DNA of 64,000 bases from Clostridiales bacterium. Lineage in GTDB: Bacteria; Bacillota; Clostridia; Oscillospirales; CAG-272. The DNA lies in the NCBI GenBank assembly GCA_012727435.1, contig JAAYHB010000021.1, positions 311,918 through 375,917 on the forward strand, read 5' to 3'. The position numbers and the translations under genes are program-made. Shown piece after piece: positions 1,883 through 52,815 of this stretch (its first letter is position 1; each line of letters begins with the position of its first letter). Below the pieces are notes generated by a model. It did no database searches and had not been told where the DNA came from. It saw nothing but the letters and a program-made list of their open reading frames with translations.

Positions 1883-3325
1883 ATGAAAAGGCTTATTCCT
1901 GCAATACTTCTGGCAGTGATACTCTCAACCTGTCTCTATACGTTCCCGGGCATGGCGGTCGCCGAGGTGAGCGCATGGGACGGCACCCCGGGCACGGGAA
2001 TTGCACAAGGTTCGGGCACCGAAGCCGACCCCTATGTCATTACAAAAGCCGCCGAGCTTGATTATATTGCAATGGCATGTATGAGCGGCGAGACCTTTGC
2101 CGGCAAATACATAAAGCTCGGCGTCAATATCGACTGGGGCGGCAGGGAATGGACCTCTATTGGCTATTCGACAAGTGCGGTGTTCAGCGGGTATTTTGAC
2201 GGCAACGGTAAGACAATCTTCAATCTCACCTGCTCCGACGTGACGGTAGGCATCTTCGGCTATGCGACAAACGCAACTATCAAAAACCTCAATATCGATT
2301 ATGCGACCTTTACGACCAACACCCGCTATGCCGGCGCAATTGTCGGACTGATGCGTGGCAGCGTGGTCTCGAACTGCTCAGCCGGCGAAAACACCAAAAT
2401 CACCACTACAGACAGCATGGAAAACACCGCTCAGATAGGCGGCCTTTTCGGGCTGGTCAACAGCAGCTATATCGACAACTGTACGTTTTACGGCGAAGTG
2501 GTGGCGACCTCGATAACCGGAACGTCCTTTGTCGGGGGAATTGCCGGTGTTATAGGAAATGTTTCCGAGGTGAGTTACTGCATCAACTACGGTTCGGTAT
2601 TGGTGACAAGCCCCAGCACTCAGGAAGGCAAATATGCCTTTGCCGGTGGGATTGCCGGCTGCATAGGCTCGAGCAGCGCGGTCGGCAGCATTAAAAACTG
2701 CATAAACAAGGGCACTGTCACGGCGATTGAATATGCCGGTGGCGTGCTCGGGCGGGTTCATGTGGCAGGCAGCAGCATGACCGACTGCTACAATGTCGGC
2801 GATGTTTCGGCAAACCAGGGCTTTGCCGGTGCGATTGTCGGGGAGGTAGCCTATAACTGCGAGATCTCAGGCTGCTATGGTCTGCCGTCAGGCTCTGCGC
2901 TCGACGCATGCGCGTCAATTGTCGATGGTGTGACGGTTGCGTCGGATGCGCTAAAACTCGGCACGACAGCCGAAATTGAGGCGCTTGAAGGATACAAGAA
3001 CACCGAAAAATCGGTATCGGAGAACATTCCGGTGTTTGATGTTGTAGTCCCGACCGAGCCGGCTGAGACCACCACCGAGGCGGAAGAAACCACCACGGCG
3101 CCTCAGGATGAAACCACGGCCCCCAAAGACGAGACCCCAGCACCTCAGGATGAGACCACCACCTCGCCGACCGAAACCACCACAGCATCCCCCGGCGGCA
3201 CCTCAGGCACTTCCGAGCCCAAGCAAGAAGGATGCAAAAGCGTACTCGGCGGCAGCGCCCTTGTGGCCGCGGCTTTTGTTACACTTGTTGTTATCAGAAA
3301 GAAAAAAGATAATCAGGTTTTATGA
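1883..3325 (+). CDS. Cell-surface protein with GLUG-like repeats, Thr-rich linker and C-terminal TM/basic tail
   Basis: Signal peptide; repeated motifs (GGIAGVIGNVSEVSYCINYGSV, GGIAGCIGSSSAVGSIKNCINKGTV, GGVLGRVHVAGSSMTDCYNVGDV); ETTTEAEETTTAPQDETTAP linker; tail CKSVLGGSALVAAAFVTLVVIRKKK. Confidence 0.75.
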   Translation: MKRLIPAILLAVILSTCLYTFPGMAVAEVSAWDGTPGTGIAQGSGTEADPYVITKAAELDYIAMACMSGETFAGKYIKLGVNIDWGGREWTSIGYSTSAVFSGYFDGNGKTIFNLTCSDVTVGIFGYATNATIKNLNIDYATFTTNTRYAGAIVGLMRGSVVSNCSAGENTKITTTDSMENTAQIGGLFGLVNSSYIDNCTFYGEVVATSITGTSFVGGIAGVIGNVSEVSYCINYGSVLVTSPSTQEGKYAFAGGIAGCIGSSSAVGSIKNCINKGTVTAIEYAGGVLGRVHVAGSSMTDCYNVGDVSANQGFAGAIVGEVAYNCEISGCYGLPSGSALDACASIVDGVTVASDALKLGTTAEIEALEGYKNTEKSVSENIPVFDVVVPTEPAETTTEAEETTTAPQDETTAPKDETPAPQDETTTSPTETTTASPGGTSGTSEPKQEGCKSVLGGSALVAAAFVTLVVIRKKKDNQVL

Positions 3326-11164: not shown

Positions 11165-11491
11165 ATGCAGATTACGGACATCAAAGTAAGAAAGCTGTTT
11201 AGTGACGGCCCCATGAAGGCAATTGTATCGGTGACATTTGACAGCCAGCTTGCTGTACATGACATTAAGGTCATCCATGCGCGCGATAAGTACTTTATCG
11301 TCATGCCCAGCCGCAAGAATCCCGACGACACCTACCGGGATATCGTACATCCCATCAACTCCCAGTTCCGCTCGGTGCTTGAATCGGCCGTGATCGAAGC
11401 ATATCAGGCCGAGCTGAAGAACGCCGAAGCCAAAGCAGAAGCCACAGCAGACACAGCCGACGCTGTTCCCAACACTCCGTCGGTTGTCTGA
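11165..11491 (+). CDS. spoVG: Septation regulator SpoVG
   Basis: MQITDIKVRKLF...AIVSVTFDSQLAVHDIKVIHARDKYFIVMPSRKNPDDTYRDIVHPINSQFR. Confidence 0.97.
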   Translation: MQITDIKVRKLFSDGPMKAIVSVTFDSQLAVHDIKVIHARDKYFIVMPSRKNPDDTYRDIVHPINSQFRSVLESAVIEAYQAELKNAEAKAEATADTADAVPNTPSVV

Positions 11492-11503
11492 TAAAATATG
11501 GCG

Positions 11504-11534
11504 GCACTCCCATCCGGGGAGTGCTTTTTTTTCG
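11504..11534 (+). terminator. spoVG rho-independent terminator
   Basis: GCACTCCC-atccg-GGGAGTGC followed by a T run. Confidence 0.85.
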
Positions 11535-11611
11535 GGGGTTCTACCCCCGGACCCCCGCTTAAGGAACTTTTTTGAAAAAAAGTTCCTTAAGAATCTTCAA
11601 AAAACTTATAA
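11535..11611 (+). repeat. Dispersed two-module stem-loop repeat, copy 1
   Basis: CGGGGGT-tct-ACCCCCG then CTTAAGGAACTTTTTT-ga-AAAAAAGTTCCTTAAG (16 bp perfect, 11560..11593), then GAATCTTCAAAAAACTTA. Confidence 0.8.
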
Positions 11612-11674: not shown

Positions 11675-12181
11675 TCAAAACTCGCCCCAGCTGAGAAGGA
11701 TTTCGCCCCGCCTTATCTCTATTATTCCGAACGAGGCGTCGCGGTATCCCCCGGCAGAGCCGGGATTGAAAAGCCAAAGCGGCTTTTTTGTTTCCATATT
11801 CCCGAGCCGGGTTCCGGCGGGGATATACTCTTCGAATTTTTTATGCGTATGCCCGAAAAGCAGGATATCTGCGCCGGCCTCGGCCGCATGCCGCGCGGCG
11901 GGCTCAGTCCCCGCCTTGACCCGATATGCATGTCCGTGCATCATCATAATCCCGACGCCGTCAAGGTTTATAAGCCTTTCTTCGGGCGCACCGAAAAAAC
12001 CGAAGACATCGCAGTTGCCGCGCACCGCAAGTACCGGCACATCCCCGGTGTCGCAGCGCGAGAGGTCGGCAAGTCCGTCCCCGAGAAAAAGGAGCATATC
12101 GGGCGGCGGTATCTGGCGGGAGAGCGCCGCCTTTATCCTATCCGGGCGGCCGTGTGTGTCTGACAAAACCAGAATTCTCAT
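11675..12181 (-). CDS. YfcE/MJ0936-family metallophosphoesterase
   Basis: MRILVLSDTHGRPD, LFLGDG, VRGNCD, MMHGH, LFGHTHKK motifs. Confidence 0.92.
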   Translation of the reverse strand: MRILVLSDTHGRPDRIKAALSRQIPPPDMLLFLGDGLADLSRCDTGDVPVLAVRGNCDVFGFFGAPEERLINLDGVGIMMMHGHAYRVKAGTEPAARHAAEAGADILLFGHTHKKFEEYIPAGTRLGNMETKKPLWLFNPGSAGGYRDASFGIIEIRRGEILLSWGEF

Positions 12182-13119: not shown

Positions 13120-13425
13120 TTGTACCTCTGCCGCAGTGCGGCCGCCCTTTCGTTGCCGGTTCGGTTCCGGAGAGCTCCGGCTGCTCTTAGCATCACTTTG
13201 CGTGCCGGATGTCCGGTATGCCTTATTTTATCATAAATTGTGAGAGTTGTCCATATATCAGATAGTTTTTCAGGAGGCGGCGCGCTTTTTGCGTTGCCTT
13301 TTGTCATTATTCGTGAATACTTCATATACTGTCGGTGACAGGCGAAAAATCCGGCAGAGTCGGGTTGGCTGCACGCCCTGCGGCGCGGTTTGTCAAGGCT
13401 AAGAAACGCAAAATCGGAGGTATAT

Positions 13426-14744: not shown

Positions 14745-14829
14745 ATAATGCCTCCGCCCTGCCCGGTTGACAAACTCCGCCACGAATGATATACTTGACG
14801 CAAACAAATCAGGGGGGCGGAGGCCGGGA

Positions 14830-15291
14830 ATGAAAAACAGGGTGGCGAAAATAATCCTTGAGATGTTGCGTCACCACATGAGCGCGTACGTGCTGGTGAC
14901 GCTTATAAATATTATACTCATCTCGCAAGGGGCCGGCACAAACCTGTATTTTTCAGCCTTTTTACCCCGGTTTGTCACAACCTATGCATATTACCGTGCC
15001 GGAAATCTTTCATACCCCGCTGTTATACCGGCAGGCATTTTGACAGCCTTGCTTTTTCTTTCGCTCTTTGCGCTTTGCGTCGTGTTCTCATATCGGGCCG
15101 CCGGCTGGCTGCTCTGCGGTGCCGGCCTTGTCGCCGCCGATACTGCTGTTATTATATGGTGGTCTGTCTGGCTCAGGGATTCCGGATATATTCCCGAAAT
15201 CCTCATCAACCTCTGGGTTATAATGGCACTCGTTGCCGGATATGTTGTGGCAATTTATCTGCAGGGGCGCCGCCCCCGAACCCACGCTTAG
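14830..15291 (+). CDS. Multi-pass membrane protein, uncharacterised; last residues encoded by a dispersed repeat
   Basis: GGCGGAGG RBS before ATG at 14830; four predicted TM segments; tail LQGRRPRTHA lies in repeat copy 2. Confidence 0.6.
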   Translation: MKNRVAKIILEMLRHHMSAYVLVTLINIILISQGAGTNLYFSAFLPRFVTTYAYYRAGNLSYPAVIPAGILTALLFLSLFALCVVFSYRAAGWLLCGAGLVAADTAVIIWWSVWLRDSGYIPEILINLWVIMALVAGYVVAIYLQGRRPRTHA

Positions 15292-15372
15292 ACCCTTTTT
15301 GAAAAAAGGGTCTAGGAACCCAAAAACTTTCAATGCGCGGGGCCTTGCCCCACACCCCACTTCAAAACCTTT
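15262..15372 (+). repeat. Dispersed two-module stem-loop repeat, copy 2
   Basis: GGGGCGCCGCCCC, TAGACCCTTTTT-ga-AAAAAGGGTCTA (15289..15314), AGGAACCCAAAAACTTT, GGGGCcttGCCCC. Confidence 0.75.
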
Positions 15373-31042: not shown

Positions 31043-31137
31043 GGGCTCTGCCCTGCTTTTTGTGCAGGGCAGAGCCCCCTCACCCCTACTTTTAGGGCTT
31101 TTTGACTTGAGCGGAGGTTTGGGGGCGGAGCCCCAAA
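31043..31137. repeat. Stem-loop pair with the GGGGCGGAGCCCC module of the dispersed repeat family
   Basis: GGGCTCTGCCCTGC-tttttgt-GCAGGGCAGAGCCC (31043..31077) and TTTGGGGGC-gga-GCCCCAAA (31118..31137). Confidence 0.55.
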
Positions 31138-31204
31138 AGAAAAGCGTGATTTTGGAGTGGAGCTCCCGGCGATACAAAAAAAGGAAAGAAAATCCCGCTT
31201 CCGG

Positions 31205-33451: not shown

Positions 33452-33837
33452 GGGCGGCCGAGTCTGCCGATGCCTCGGCGCTTGCATATCTCGGAGATGC
33501 GGTAATCGAACTCTGGGTGCGGGAGCGGCTGGTCAGAGCCGGTGTGTGCGGCCCGCGCGAGCTTCATGAGCAGGCAAAGGGATATGTCACGGCCCCCGCG
33601 CAGGCTGCAGCGATGAAGCGGATACTCCCTTTGCTTGATGATGAGGAGAATATGGTGTTTCACCGCGGGCGGAATACCGGACATACAAGCCTGCCGAAGA
33701 ACTCCACCGCCGCTGAATACCGCGCGGCGTCTGGTATGGAAGCGCTTTTCGGCTGGCTGTACCTTTCGGGGCGCGATGAAAGGATTGCAGAGCTGCTTGA
33801 AACCGGTTATAAAATACAAAATACGGTACACACCTGA
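33448..33837 (+). CDS. mrnC: Mini-ribonuclease III
   Basis: ALAYLGDAVIELWVRERLV, FHRGRNTGHTSLPKNSTAAEYRAASGMEALFGWLYLSG. Confidence 0.93.
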   Translation: MRAAESADASALAYLGDAVIELWVRERLVRAGVCGPRELHEQAKGYVTAPAQAAAMKRILPLLDDEENMVFHRGRNTGHTSLPKNSTAAEYRAASGMEALFGWLYLSGRDERIAELLETGYKIQNTVHT

Positions 33838-33914
33838 GTTTTAACAAATATTTAAGCCGCGGGCAGCATAGCCCGCGGCTGTCATTGTATGTTTGAGAGT
33901 TTTTTTATTCTTAG

Positions 33915-34013
33915 GAAGTTTTTGGGATTCTCAAGGAACTTTTTTTCAAAAAAGCTTCTTGAGCGGGGGTTCGGGGGCGGCGCCACGCAACCGGGGTGTG
34001 GGGCGGAGCCCCA
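33915..34013 (-). repeat. Dispersed two-module stem-loop repeat, copy 3
   Basis: GAAGTTTTTGGGATT-CTCAAGGAACTTTTTT..AAAAAAGCTTCTTGAG-CGGGGGTTCGGGGGCGGCGCC..GTGGGGCGGAGCCCCAC. Confidence 0.8.
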
Positions 34014-34018
34014 CATAA

Positions 34019-36046
34019 TTAATGTTGCGTTTGGTCGGGCAGGGGATTGTTCTGTCCGGAGATTTCGGAATCGCTGCCGCCCAGAGCAAGCTGCTCGGCG
34101 TCGCGCCGGGCTTTTTCGCGGTTTGCCTCGGCCCGCTTGCGCTTCTTCTCGTCGGCGATTGCCTCGAGCTCCTCGAACGTCGGGTCGCCCTCCATAGCGC
34201 ATTTGAACTGGTCGGCATCCATGACCTCGTTTTTAATGAGGAATTCGGCTATGAATTTGAGCTTTTCGATATTTTCGGTCAAGAGTTTTTTAGCGCGCTC
34301 GTAAGCTTCGGTGATAATGCGGTGGATTTCAGCATCAATTTTCGAGGCGACGGCTTCGGAGATGCTGTTGGTGTCGACAAACGACTTGCCGAGGAAGACC
34401 TCGCCGTGGGTGTTTGAATAATTTATCGGCCCGATGATGTCGCTCATGCCGAGCTGTGTCACCATCCGGCGCGCTATATCGGTAGCCTTTTCTATGTCGT
34501 TTGCGGCGCCGCCCGAGAAGTTGCCGAACATGATTTCCTCGGCCGCCCTGCCGCCGAGCAATTCGCAGATGCGCTCGTGCAGCTCATCGCGGTATACGCT
34601 GAACCGGTCCTCTTCGGGCACAATCAGGGTATATCCCAGCGCCCTGCCGCTCGGGATAATGGATATCTGGTGCACCGGGTCAAGATGGGGCAGCAGGTAA
34701 GCGAGAATTGCGTGGCCGGCCTCGTGAAAAGCGGTATTGCGCTTTTCGGTCTCGCTCATGCGCCGTGACTTTTTCTTGGAGCCGACCAAAACCTTCAGGA
34801 AGGCGTCCTCAATGTCGCTGCTGTCAATGAGGTTCTTGCCCCGCCTGGCGGCAAGCAGCGCCGCTTCGTTGAGCAGGTTTTCAAGGTCGGCGCCGGTAAA
34901 CCCGGCGGTGGTCTGCGCCACCTTTGCCAGGTCGACATCAGGGCCGAGCGGCTTGTTGCGGGCATGAACCTTCAGGATCTCCTCGCGCCCTTTGATGTCG
35001 GGGTAATTCATTGTCACCTGCCGGTCAAAGCGCCCGGGGCGAAGCAGCGCGGGGTCGAGTATGTCAGGGCGGTTGGTCGCGGCAATCACAATTATGCCGT
35101 CGTTGGTGCCGAATCCGTCCATCTCGACGAGCAGCTGGTTTAAGGTCTGCTCGCGCTCGTCGTGTCCGCCGCCAAGGCCTGCGCCGCGGTGGCGCCCGAC
35201 GGCGTCAATTTCATCTATGAATACTATCGAGGCCGGTGCCTTGCGGGCGGTTTCAAACAGGTCGCGTACGCGCGAGGCGCCGACACCGACATACATTTCG
35301 ACAAAGTCGGACCCCGATATCGAGAAGAAGGGAACCCCGGCCTCGCCGGCGACCGCCTTTGCTAACAGTGTCTTGCCGGTTCCCGGAGGACCGACCAAAA
35401 GAACGCCGTGGGGAATTTTCGCGCCAAGCCTAGAGAACTTCGCGGGATCTTTGAGGTAGGCAACGATTTCCTCAAGCTCGGCCTTTTCCTCGTCCGCGCC
35501 GGCCACGTCTTTGAAGGTCTTGCGGTCCCTGTCGTTGGGGCTTGGCATCTTGACTCTTGCCTTGCCGAAGGAGCTGATTTTGCTGCCCTTCCCGCCGGCT
35601 GCCTGGTTGAGCGCATAAAACCAAAGGGCGACAAAGACAATAAGCACAATGACATAAGGCAGGAAGCTGACCCACCACGGCCATACGGTGGGCGGCTCAA
35701 AATCATATGACTCAATGTTTTTATTGTTGATATAATATTCCGACAGGTCGGTATGGAAGAGCTCAAGGCTCTGCAACCGGTATCCGACAAACTTGGTAGG
35801 ATTTATGATTTTTCCGTCGGAGTCATAAACAAACTCGCCGTCCTTGCCGAGGTCATAAACTTCCATCTCAAGATAATTGGTGTTAGAAACGGTAAAGGAT
35901 TTCACCTGGTCGTTTTTGAAGTACCCGACGATGTCGTCGTACTTTACCGGTTCGACCTCTGTAGACGAAAAAAAGTGAGATACGACCAGTATAATGACGA
36001 CAATGACGGCAAGATAAACCAGTATTGTTTTGACGGTACTTTTCAT
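34019..36046 (-). CDS. ftsH: ATP-dependent zinc metalloprotease FtsH
   Basis: [59 protein letters not shown]. Confidence 0.97.
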
Positions 36047-51466: not shown

Positions 51467-51606
51467 CCGGAGCACCTCCGACCAAAGTATGTAAGGGCGT
51501 CGGACGTCAGGTAACCTCTGAGTTTTTCGTTACCTTTTAGGACGGTAAACCTCGATTATAGTATTTCAAAAAAAAGAACAGCAAACTCATTACATATTTT
51601 TGTTTT

Positions 51607-51674
51607 AAGTTTTTGAGGAATCTTAAGGAACTTTTTTCAAAAGTCCCTTAAGCGGGGTGTGGGGCGGAGCCCCG
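51607..51674 (-). repeat. Dispersed two-module stem-loop repeat, copy 4a
   Basis: AAGTTTTTGAGGAAT-CTTAAGGAACTTTT..AAAAGTCCCTTAAG-CGGGGTGTGGGGCGGAGCCCCG. Confidence 0.8.
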
Positions 51675-51679
51675 TGTGT

Positions 51680-51752
51680 AAAAAGTTTTTGGGGATTCTC
51701 AAGACCCTTTTTCAAAAAGGGTCTTGAGCAGGGGGACGGGGGCAGCGCCCCC
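51680..51752 (-). repeat. Dispersed two-module stem-loop repeat, copy 4b
   Basis: AAAAGTTTTTGGGGATT-CTCAAGACCCTTTTT-c-AAAAAGGGTCTTGAG-CAGGGGGACGGGGGCAGCGCCCCCG. Confidence 0.8.
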
Positions 51753-51753
51753 G

Positions 51754-52815
51754 TTACTCCGCGCTCTCACGGCGAAGCTGGCCACAGGAAGCATTTATGT
51801 CGGCGCCGAGGCGCCGGCGCAGGGTGGCTCTTATTCCCCGGCGGTCGAGGACTGCTGCAAAAGCACGCGGGTCGGCGGCCCTGGCGTCGGGGCTTGCCAG
51901 CTCGCGGCCGTTCACTCTGTTCTGCGGGATGAGGTTGACATGTATCGGCATGGGCCCGTCCGCCCTCAGATGGGAGTTGAGCAGATCTGCGAGCCGGTTT
52001 GCGTCGGCGGGGCTGTCGTTCAGCCCCGGGATTAGGACATATTCAAAGGAAATCCGCCGGCCGGGGCCGGAGCGGTAGTATTCCCGGCAGGCGTCGAGCA
52101 GTTCGGCAATACTCCAGCGTCTGTTTACCGGCATAATTCTGGAGCGCTGTTTATCGTCGGCGGCGTGGAGCGAGACGGACAGGGTAATCGGCAGCCCCTC
52201 GCCGCGCAGCCTTCTGATTTTGTCAACCAGCCCGCAGGTCGAGAGCGAGATATGCCGGTATCCGATATTCAGCCCATATTCATGATTGACAAGATGCAGG
52301 AATTTTATAACGTTATCGTAATTATCGAGCGGCTCGCCGATGCCCATTAGGACTATATTTGAAATCCGCTCGCCGGAATCAAGCCGCGCCGCTATGACCT
52401 GTCCTAAAATCTCGCCGGGGGTGAGGTTGCGCACCATGCCGCCGATGGTCGAGGCGCAGAAGGCACAGCCCATGCGGCAGCCCACCTGAGTTGAGACGCA
52501 GATGCTGTTTCCGTGTCTGTATATCATCAGCACGCTCTCAATGCAGTTGCCGTCGGCGAGCCCGAAGAGGTATTTTATCGTGCCGTCAAGCTTTGAGACC
52601 AGCTTTCTGCGCACCTCGGGCAGGTGGTATGACGCGGCGGCACGCAGCTTGGCTTTGGTGGCATTGCCGATGTTGGTAATTTCGTCGGGCGAGAGGCCGC
52701 GGTGCAGCCCCTCAAAGAGCTGGCGCGCGCGGTAGCCTGGCTCGCCGAGCGAGGCCATGAGCGAGACCAGCTCGTCGGGGAGCAGCGAGAGCAGCTCGGG
52801 TCGGGAATTATCCAT
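51754..52815 (-). CDS. rlmN: 23S rRNA (adenine(2503)-C(2))-methyltransferase
   Basis: CVSTQVGCRMGCAFCASTIGGMVRNLTPGEILGQV radical SAM motif; NIVLMGIGEPLDNYDNV; ALSLHA-type motif TLSVSLHAADD. Confidence 0.96.
   Translation of the reverse strand: MDNSRPELLSLLPDELVSLMASLGEPGYRARQLFEGLHRGLSPDEITNIGNATKAKLRAAASYHLPEVRRKLVSKLDGTIKYLFGLADGNCIESVLMIYRHGNSICVSTQVGCRMGCAFCASTIGGMVRNLTPGEILGQVIAARLDSGERISNIVLMGIGEPLDNYDNVIKFLHLVNHEYGLNIGYRHISLSTCGLVDKIRRLRGEGLPITLSVSLHAADDKQRSRIMPVNRRWSIAELLDACREYYRSGPGRRISFEYVLIPGLNDSPADANRLADLLNSHLRADGPMPIHVNLIPQNRVNGRELASPDARAADPRAFAAVLDRRGIRATLRRRLGADINASCGQLRRESAE

What the first reader, a model, noticed from the sequence alone, without database searches (positions are those of the whole stretch)
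51607..51752. Dispersed two-module stem-loop repeat family with compensatory arm changes
Copies at 11535-11611, 15262-15372, 33915-34013 and 51607-51752 (two) share one architecture: a GC hairpin (GGGGCGGAGCCCC-like), then a long AT-rich palindrome, then a conserved AAGTTTTTGGGATT arm. The long stem is kept while its sequence changes on both arms: CTTAAGGAACTTTTTT/AAAAAAGTTCCTTAAG, CTCAAGACCCTTTTT/AAAAAGGGTCTTGAG, TAGACCCTTTTT/AAAAAGGGTCTA. That pattern points to selection on folded RNA or DNA rather than on a fixed sequence. All copies lie just past gene 3' ends, mostly between convergent genes, so they may act as terminators, 3' UTR stabilisers or non-autonomous mobile elements.
Basis: partly seen in the sequence, partly recalled or inferred. 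Interest (0 to 1): 0.75.

Follow-up and report, generated by a model that had tools for sequence, protein, structure and literature searches.

The report
REP-like hairpin repeats at gene ends
About 110 copies of a short two-hairpin DNA repeat are scattered through this gut-type bacterium's genome, almost always just behind the ends of genes; they look like a new, transposase-less relative of the REP/BIME repeats of E. coli and Pseudomonas rather than a regulatory RNA or a terminator.

Summary
The window holds five clear copies (four loci) of a unit: AAGTTTTTGRGGATTC, a 14-15 bp palindromic stem closed by CTTTTTTCAAAAAAG, then a GGGGCRGMGCCCC hairpin. The own genome (1.78 Mb MAG) has about 110 copies, a same-genus genome 96, and 52 of 299 genomes of the order have some, very patchily. 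Stem covariation is strong in two independent copy sets. Copies sit between convergent genes or behind the upstream gene of tandem pairs and almost never in divergent gaps; the GC hairpin usually starts 3-14 nt after a stop codon. Three interpretive points change. (1) Mismatches are not strand-biased (G-U 58 versus A-C 43 in the long stem) and orientation to transcription is not significantly biased, so selection on one RNA strand is not shown. (2) The core lacks a T-tract; 43 of 53 element gaps carry a separate terminator. (3) Copies differ in presence, number, modules and stem sequence at orthologous sites, occur as tandem arrays and fixed-spacing inverted dimers, and coincide with some rearrangement breakpoints. 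Best reading: a REP/BIME-like interspersed palindromic DNA repeat family of Oscillospirales-type Clostridia, lacking the GTAG/CGTC tag and any association with RAYT/Y1 transposases. The mobilising agent is unknown.

The parts
51604..51682 (+). copy D1: AAGTTTTTGAGGAATC + stem CTTAAGGAACTTTTTT/AAAAGTCCCTTAAG (imperfect) + CGGGGTGTGGGGCGGAGCCCC hairpin
   Evidence: CM R1 81.8 bits; sequence
51680..51760 (+). copy D2: AAGTTTTTGGGGATT + perfect stem CTCAAGACCCTTTTT/AAAAAGGGTCTTGAG + CGGGGGCAGCGCCCCCG hairpin; hairpin foot 1-2 nt from the TAA stop (51754-51756) of gene 51754-52815(-)
   Evidence: CM R1 90.5 bits; fold z -5.0
33913..33995 (+). copy C, stem CTCAAGGAACTTTTTTT/AAAAAAGCTTCTTGAG; coincides with a loss of gene order relative to same-genus genome G002
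   Evidence: CM R1 68.2 bits; synteny
33993..34013 (+). second GC hairpin (CGGGGTGTGGGGCGGAGCCCC) between copy C and the stop codon of gene 34019-36046(-)
15255..15332 (-). copy B, stem TAGACCCTTTTTT/AAAAAGGGTCTA; the ORF 14767-15291(+) runs into it and ends at a TAG inside the stem
   Evidence: CM R1 68.5 bits
15333..15360 (-). extra GC hairpin (GGGGTGTGGGGCAAGGCCCCGCG) upstream of copy B in element orientation, as in tandem (core)n copies
11526..11609 (-). copy A, perfect stem CTTAAGGAACTTTTTT/AAAAAAGTTCCTTAAG, between convergent genes 11165-11491(+) and 11675-12181(-)
   Evidence: CM R1 90.2 bits; fold z -3.2
31083..31143 (+). degenerate copy with shortened stem and intact GGGGGCGGAGCCCC hairpin, in a tandem gap; G002 has a full copy, in opposite orientation, in the corresponding (enlarged) gap
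   Evidence: 27.9 bits
25221..25244 (+). solitary GC-hairpin module (AACCGGTGTGCGGGGCTTTGCCCC) without the long stem, between convergent genes
   Evidence: repeat family D8

Best explanation
The copies belong to an interspersed palindromic DNA repeat family of the REP/BIME kind, confined so far to Oscillospiraceae-type Clostridia. The basic unit (about 75-80 bp, two hairpins) is a non-autonomous element that multiplies at DNA level: new copies or exchanges arise within a genome, probably through a single-stranded or hairpin DNA intermediate handled by an enzyme not identified here, and copies then recombine with each other, giving tandem arrays, inverted dimers, composites with other hairpin modules (M1, M2) and inversions. 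Insertions survive mainly behind stop codons because 5' regions and genes do not tolerate them. Shown: copy number, architecture, covariation, placement, patchy distribution, presence/absence and stem turnover at orthologous sites, coincidence with some rearrangement breakpoints. Inferred: actual transposition, a DNA hairpin intermediate, and selection against other sites as the cause of the placement.
For: About 110 copies at E<=1e-5 in the own genome; 96, 53, 35 in G002, G020, G017, but 11 in same-genus G001 and none in most family members; 52 of 299 genomes of the order. Orthologous gaps between G000 and G002: of 11 tallied, 5 have a copy in both, 5 only in G002, 1 only in G000; at C12:208284-208568 a complete M2+core element is present in G002 and absent in G000 with flanking terminators aligned; where both have a copy, stem sequence or modules differ. 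Tandem arrays (182- and about 230-bp period) and inverted dimers with 13-14 or 60-61 bp spacing in other genomes. Composite with M2 at preferred 20-25 nt spacing, 22 of 56 cores. Inversion C12:379.6-393.8 kb bounded by oppositely oriented copies; other breakpoints at copies. Placement: 60 of 107 convergent and 3 of 107 divergent versus about 19% and 25-32% expected, as described for REPs (PMC3733652). Mismatches not strand-biased.
Against: No mobilising enzyme found: Y1_Tnp/RAYT, TnpB, rve and IS110-type Transposase_20 have no match in element-rich G000, G002, G017 and G020, and a reverse transcriptase only in G002. No target-site duplication or exact insertion junction could be read, because spacer DNA diverges too far between the two genomes. 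Hairpin feet 3-14 nt from stop codons (56 of 84) is tighter than simple tolerance of insertion predicts and could mean a function at the gene end. All genomes compared are metagenome assemblies.
Confidence: 0.68

Rival explanations
1. A functional 3'-UTR element: the GC hairpin just after the stop codon plus the long stem act in the transcript, blocking 3' exonucleases or slowing the terminating ribosome, and selection keeps both hairpins.
For: Hairpin foot 3-14 nt after a stop codon in 56 of 84 antiparallel neighbours; the core lies within 10 nt of the stop 35 times versus 7 expected if slid at random in its own gap, 0 of 10000 simulations; strong covariation. GC-hairpin mismatches lean slightly to G-U (38 vs 21, p = 0.036).
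Against: No significant G-U excess over A-C in the long stem; orientation to transcription in tandem gaps not significantly biased (17 vs 27); copies frequently absent or different at orthologous genes; in some gaps the copy lies beyond the neighbouring gene's own terminator.
Confidence: 0.22
2. The stem covariation is mostly mutational: arms of a quasipalindrome are homogenised by replication template switching, or whole stems are replaced by recombination with other copies, so no structural selection is needed.
For: Stems at orthologous sites differ by blocks of consecutive matched pairs (GGAA(T/C)/GTTCC vs GACCC/GGGTC at the finding locus); many stem sequences (72 arm combinations in 104 copies); arm homogenisation by template switching is documented (abstracts of PMC8604942 and PMC7202029).
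Against: It explains how arms stay matched but not why the copies multiplied or where they sit; it complements the best explanation rather than replacing it.
Confidence: 0.35
3. Intrinsic bidirectional terminators for convergent genes.
For: 30 of 52 copies in G000 and 30 of 55 in G002 lie in convergent gaps.
Against: The core has no T-tract: 4 of 53 element gaps have a terminator-like hairpin within it, while 43 of 53 (28 of 29 convergent) have a separate one. The upstream M2 module read backwards does look like a terminator (AGCGCGGG..CCCGCGCTTTT), so the composite may carry one.
Confidence: 0.05
4. A MITE of a classical DDE insertion sequence.
For: Size, copy number and lack of coding capacity fit.
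Against: The unit has no terminal inverted repeats (AAGTTTTTG at one end, GGGGC..GCCCC at the other); no rve or Transposase_20 match in element-rich genomes, but other DDE families (IS256, IS4, ISL3, IS1595) were not searched and assemblies drop insertion sequences.
Confidence: 0.07

Closest known systems
REP / BIME (GTAG and CGTC superfamilies; Di Nocera et al. 2013, PMC3733652)
   Same: High-copy intergenic palindromes, between convergent and unidirectional genes and rarely between divergent ones, close to stop codons, sometimes supplying the stop codon; dimers, clusters and mosaics with other repeats. CGTC REPs likewise lack a dedicated transposase.
   Different: Unit is two hairpins (75-80 bp versus 20-40 bp); no GTAG or CGTC tag at the stem feet (1 and 0 of 104 copies); no Y1/RAYT gene and no positive association with one; the paper's text does not mention Firmicutes or Clostridia.
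REPIN-RAYT systems (PMC3116915)
   Same: Inverted dimers at fixed spacing in several related genomes.
   Different: Dimers are the exception in the window's genome; no RAYT in element-rich genomes.
Stem-loop sequence families catalogued in low-GC Firmicutes (PMC2267715)
   Same: Computationally defined families of repeated stem-loops in intergenic DNA.
   Different: That survey lists Clostridium perfringens and C. tetani; the passages found name no Oscillospiraceae; identity to any family there was not tested.
Bacterial MITEs
   Same: Small, non-autonomous, high copy.
   Different: No terminal inverted repeats, no recognisable parent insertion sequence.

Membership tests
REP/BIME-type repeats (broad sense) | High-copy extragenic palindromic repeat dispersed over the chromosome | tested here: met
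   About 110 copies in 1.78 Mb, nearly all intergenic
REP/BIME-type repeats (broad sense) | Located behind genes, between convergent or unidirectional ORFs | tested here: met
   60 convergent, 44 tandem, 3 divergent of 107
REP/BIME-type repeats (broad sense) | Occurs as monomers, inverted dimers and mosaics with other motifs | tested here: met
GTAG or CGTC REP superfamilies (strict sense) | Unpaired GTAG or CGTC tag at one foot of the hairpin | tested here: not met
   1 GTAG and 0 CGTC in 104 copies within 10 nt of the long-stem feet
REPIN-RAYT | Genome carries a REP-associated Y1 tyrosine transposase | tested here: not met
   PF01797 without match in G000, G001, G002, G017, G020; 16 of 52 element-positive versus 109 of 247 element-negative genomes have one, p = 0.09 in the negative direction
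Intrinsic terminator | GC-rich hairpin followed by a T-tract | tested here: not met
   Met within the core in 4 of 53 gaps only
MITE | Terminal inverted repeats and target-site duplication | tested here: inconclusive
   No inverted repeats at the unit ends in the alignments; duplications could not be read because empty sites are too diverged
Known Rfam family | Score above the gathering threshold of a curated family | tested here: not met
   Only tRNAs pass in the window; best sub-threshold hit at the finding locus is 21.4 bits to a plant miRNA family against 56 needed
Conserved structured RNA | G-U pairs tolerated, A-C avoided on the functional strand | tested here: not met
   Long stem G-U 58 vs A-C 43, p = 0.16; GC hairpin 38 vs 21, p = 0.036

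The most novel reading that the evidence does not exclude
A transposase-less palindromic repeat that multiplies through host replication or repair enzymes and is targeted to, or retained at, a fixed few nucleotides after stop codons, where its first hairpin also modulates translation termination or mRNA decay: a selfish repeat domesticated as a general 3'-end module in a clade of Clostridia.
Probability: 0.15. Interest if true: 0.75.

Novelty: new variant of a known kind. Interest (0 to 1): 0.5.

Why it matters
The REP-like families surveyed in PMC3733652 come mostly from Proteobacteria, and the GTAG ones are tied to RAYT transposases. A high-copy REP-like family in gut Clostridia with no resident Y1 transposase raises the question of what spreads it, gives a ready covariance model for annotation, and supplies many natural presence/absence cases for testing what hairpins a few nucleotides behind a stop codon do. 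The copies also coincide with rearrangement breakpoints and with contig ends in assemblies, so they matter for genome structure and MAG quality.

Tried and rejected
Rfam at gathering and relaxed thresholds: nothing credible. Exact 21-mer in viral contigs: none. Mobilisers searched and not found as a shared feature of element-rich genomes: PF01797, PF07282, PF00078, PF00665, PF02371. Terminator reading rejected. Literature searches for a named repeat family in Oscillospiraceae, Ruminococcaceae or Faecalibacterium found none; open-access text only. Orthologous stem comparison as a clean series of in-place point compensations failed, because stems at the same site differ in blocks and modules differ. 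The exact-match Parcubacteria contig (L094) gives no hit with the covariance model and is taken as chance.

Full report
OBSERVATION. In the direction used here each unit reads AAGTTTTTGRGGATTC, then a stem of 14-15 bp whose outer part is CTYAAG/CTTRAG, whose middle varies (GGAAC/GTTCC, GACCC/GGGTC, GGGGC/GCCCC and others) and whose loop side is CTTTTTTCAAAAAAG, then CGGGG and a second hairpin GGGGCRGMGCCCC. The genome in which the window lies holds 69 matches to the 21-mer with up to 3 mismatches against 0 for the reversed control. A covariance model from 33 copies (R1) finds 148 matches at E<=0.1, 26 of them short hits, mostly the same palindromes read backwards, and 110 at E<=1e-5, about one per 16 kb.

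COVARIATION. (33 copies): 93.6% of cells paired versus 86.0% shuffled; 62 two-sided changes versus 24.7. (104 copies from G000 and same-genus G002): 94.3% versus 84.6%; 237 versus 75.9. (113 copies from other named genomes): 98.2% versus 81.9%; 371 versus 86.7; all 15 pairs of the long stem show two-sided changes. Slid controls fall sharply each time. The alignments were fitted to the model, so they lean towards it. Paired arms are beyond doubt; why they stay paired is a separate question.

RNA OR DNA. If one RNA strand were under selection, G-U mismatches should be tolerated and A-C avoided (general knowledge). In the long stem the counts are 41 versus 33 (G000/G002) and 17 versus 10 (other genomes), together 58 versus 43, p = 0.16; the GC hairpin leans slightly to G-U, 38 versus 21, p = 0.036. 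In tandem gene pairs orientation to transcription is 17 co and 27 anti, p = 0.17. Neither test gives clear evidence for a one-strand RNA function; neither excludes one.

PLACEMENT. With a simple dicodon gene caller on 790 kb of the own genome, 52 scorable copies divide into 30 convergent, 21 tandem and 1 divergent gaps, versus 18%, 50% and 32% expected from gap length (p = 2e-10 for convergent excess, 5e-8 for divergent deficit); G002 gives 30, 23 and 2. Most copies first scored as inside genes fall in spurious ORFs of 31-40 aa; the two long-gene cases are edge overlaps. Towards an antiparallel gene the distance from core to stop codon is two-peaked, -7 to +9 or 20-57 nt with none between 10 and 19; in 35 of 45 of the farther class a second GGGG..CCCC hairpin fills the space, and measured from the last GC hairpin 56 of 84 lie 3-14 nt from the stop codon. 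The core lies within 10 nt of the stop 35 times versus 7 expected if slid uniformly in its own gap (0 of 10000 simulations). The same habit is reported for REPs: convergent REPs usually lie less than 20 bp from both 3' ends (PMC3733652).

NOT A TERMINATOR. Only 4 of 53 element gaps have a terminator-like hairpin within the core, and 43 of 53 (28 of 29 convergent) have one elsewhere in the gap. Copy A lies beyond the terminator of gene 11165-11491 (CACTCCCATCCGGGGAGTGCTTTTTTTT).

MOSAIC ARCHITECTURE. In 22 of 56 sampled cores an M2 module (AAAGCGCGGGATnnnCCCGCGCTACTTTATTTGCGATATAGGTTT) lies upstream, most often ending 20-25 nt from the core, against 5 on the other side; M2 and the GC hairpin also occur alone. 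A few copies carry a further M1 hairpin (GGGCGACC..GGTCGCCC). Other genomes have tandem arrays (period 182 in L087, about 230 in L106) and inverted dimers with gaps of 13-14 or 60-61 bp (L043, L080, L056, L090, L083, L079, L065).

TURNOVER. G000 and G002 share gene order (reciprocal best hits, median 84% protein identity). Among orthologous gaps with a copy in at least one genome, 5 have it in both, 5 only in G002 and 1 only in G000 (G002 stretches were chosen around elements, so this ratio is biased). At C12:208284-208568 G002 has a complete M2+core between aligned flanks and G000 has none. At the finding's own locus G002 has one copy where G000 has two, at the same stop codon and with the same GC hairpin, but with stem CTCAAGGAAT/GTTCCTTGAG instead of CTCAAGACCC/GGGTCTTGAG. 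Such block differences suggest copy exchange or template switching as much as step-by-step compensation; template switching is known to homogenise inverted-repeat arms (abstract of PMC8604942).

REARRANGEMENTS. Copy C (33.9 kb) lies where gene order breaks between G000 and G002; its left flank maps to C10 and its right flank to C30, both away from contig ends. A segment C12:379.6-393.8 kb is inverted in G002 inside one contig, with oppositely oriented copies in both boundary gaps. Seven of 16 broken adjacencies carry an element versus 9 of 173 kept ones (p = 6e-5; p = 0.02 for gaps of at least 100 bp); sampling around elements and assembly breaks inflate this, so it is a lead only.

DISTRIBUTION AND MOBILISER. 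Exact 21-mer matches across 85,488 species genomes fall in Oscillospiraceae or Clostridia records except one Parcubacteria contig without a CM match and records titled only as bacteria or by genus (Neglectibacter, strain D16-76). R1 hits: G000 110, G002 96, G020 53, G017 35, G010 25, G004 22, same-genus G001 11, most others 0; 52 of 299 genomes of the order. Y1_Tnp, the RAYT/IS200 fold, occurs in 125 of 299 but in only 16 of the 52 element-positive genomes, and in none of G000, G001, G002, G017, G020. TnpB, rve and Transposase_20 have no match in G000, G002, G017 or G020; a reverse transcriptase occurs only in G002 among them. Metagenome assemblies lose insertion sequences, so absence is moderate evidence.

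CONCLUSION. By anatomy, placement, mosaic behaviour and turnover the family works like REP/BIME repeats. It is not a member of the described GTAG or CGTC superfamilies (tag tested, not met) nor of REPIN-RAYT systems (transposase tested, not met). What copies it, and whether a hairpin a few nucleotides behind the stop codon does something for the gene, remain open.

Noticed in passing
G000:C12:379500-394272 (outside the window; L125-L126): A ~14-kb segment is inverted relative to contig C30 of G002, with oppositely oriented copies of a sister subfamily (GGGAGAAACTTCTTTCAAGAAGTTTCTCCC stem) in the two boundary gaps: a likely repeat-mediated inversion.
   Followed up: partly
window 33815-34028: Gene order relative to G002 breaks at copy C; G002 carries a decayed copy (AAAATTTTTGAGG...CGGGGGCAGCGCCCCCG) at the same gene end next to unrelated flanking DNA.
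   Followed up: partly
G000:C12:110602-110683 (L112:10602-10683): A sister subfamily with an all-GC outer stem (GGTCCGGGGGAACTTTTTTCAAAAAGTTCCCCCGG) next to the common AT-type copy; similar GC-type stems are common in other Oscillospiraceae loci (L056, L083, L090), pointing to a wider superfamily.
   Followed up: no
L087:1660-2160 and L106:1-840: Tandem arrays of the unit with conserved spacers of 182 and about 230 bp in other Clostridia genomes.
   Followed up: no
G002 contigs C2, C47 and C52, first 65 bases: Several G002 contigs begin within a copy, so the repeat seems to break assemblies.
   Followed up: no
G000:C12:10032-10353 and L166 about 13400-13420: Another palindromic repeat, TTTCTTTGT.CGTGCAAAGAAACGAACCAAAGAAAC-like, in intergenic DNA of both genomes.
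   Followed up: no
window 15255-15291: ORF 14767-15291(+) runs into copy B and takes its stop codon from the element stem, so its C-terminus may be element-encoded.
   Followed up: no
window 3040-3186: Short direct repeat (GAGACCACCACC...) inside an ORF, probably encoding a Thr-rich repeat.
   Followed up: no
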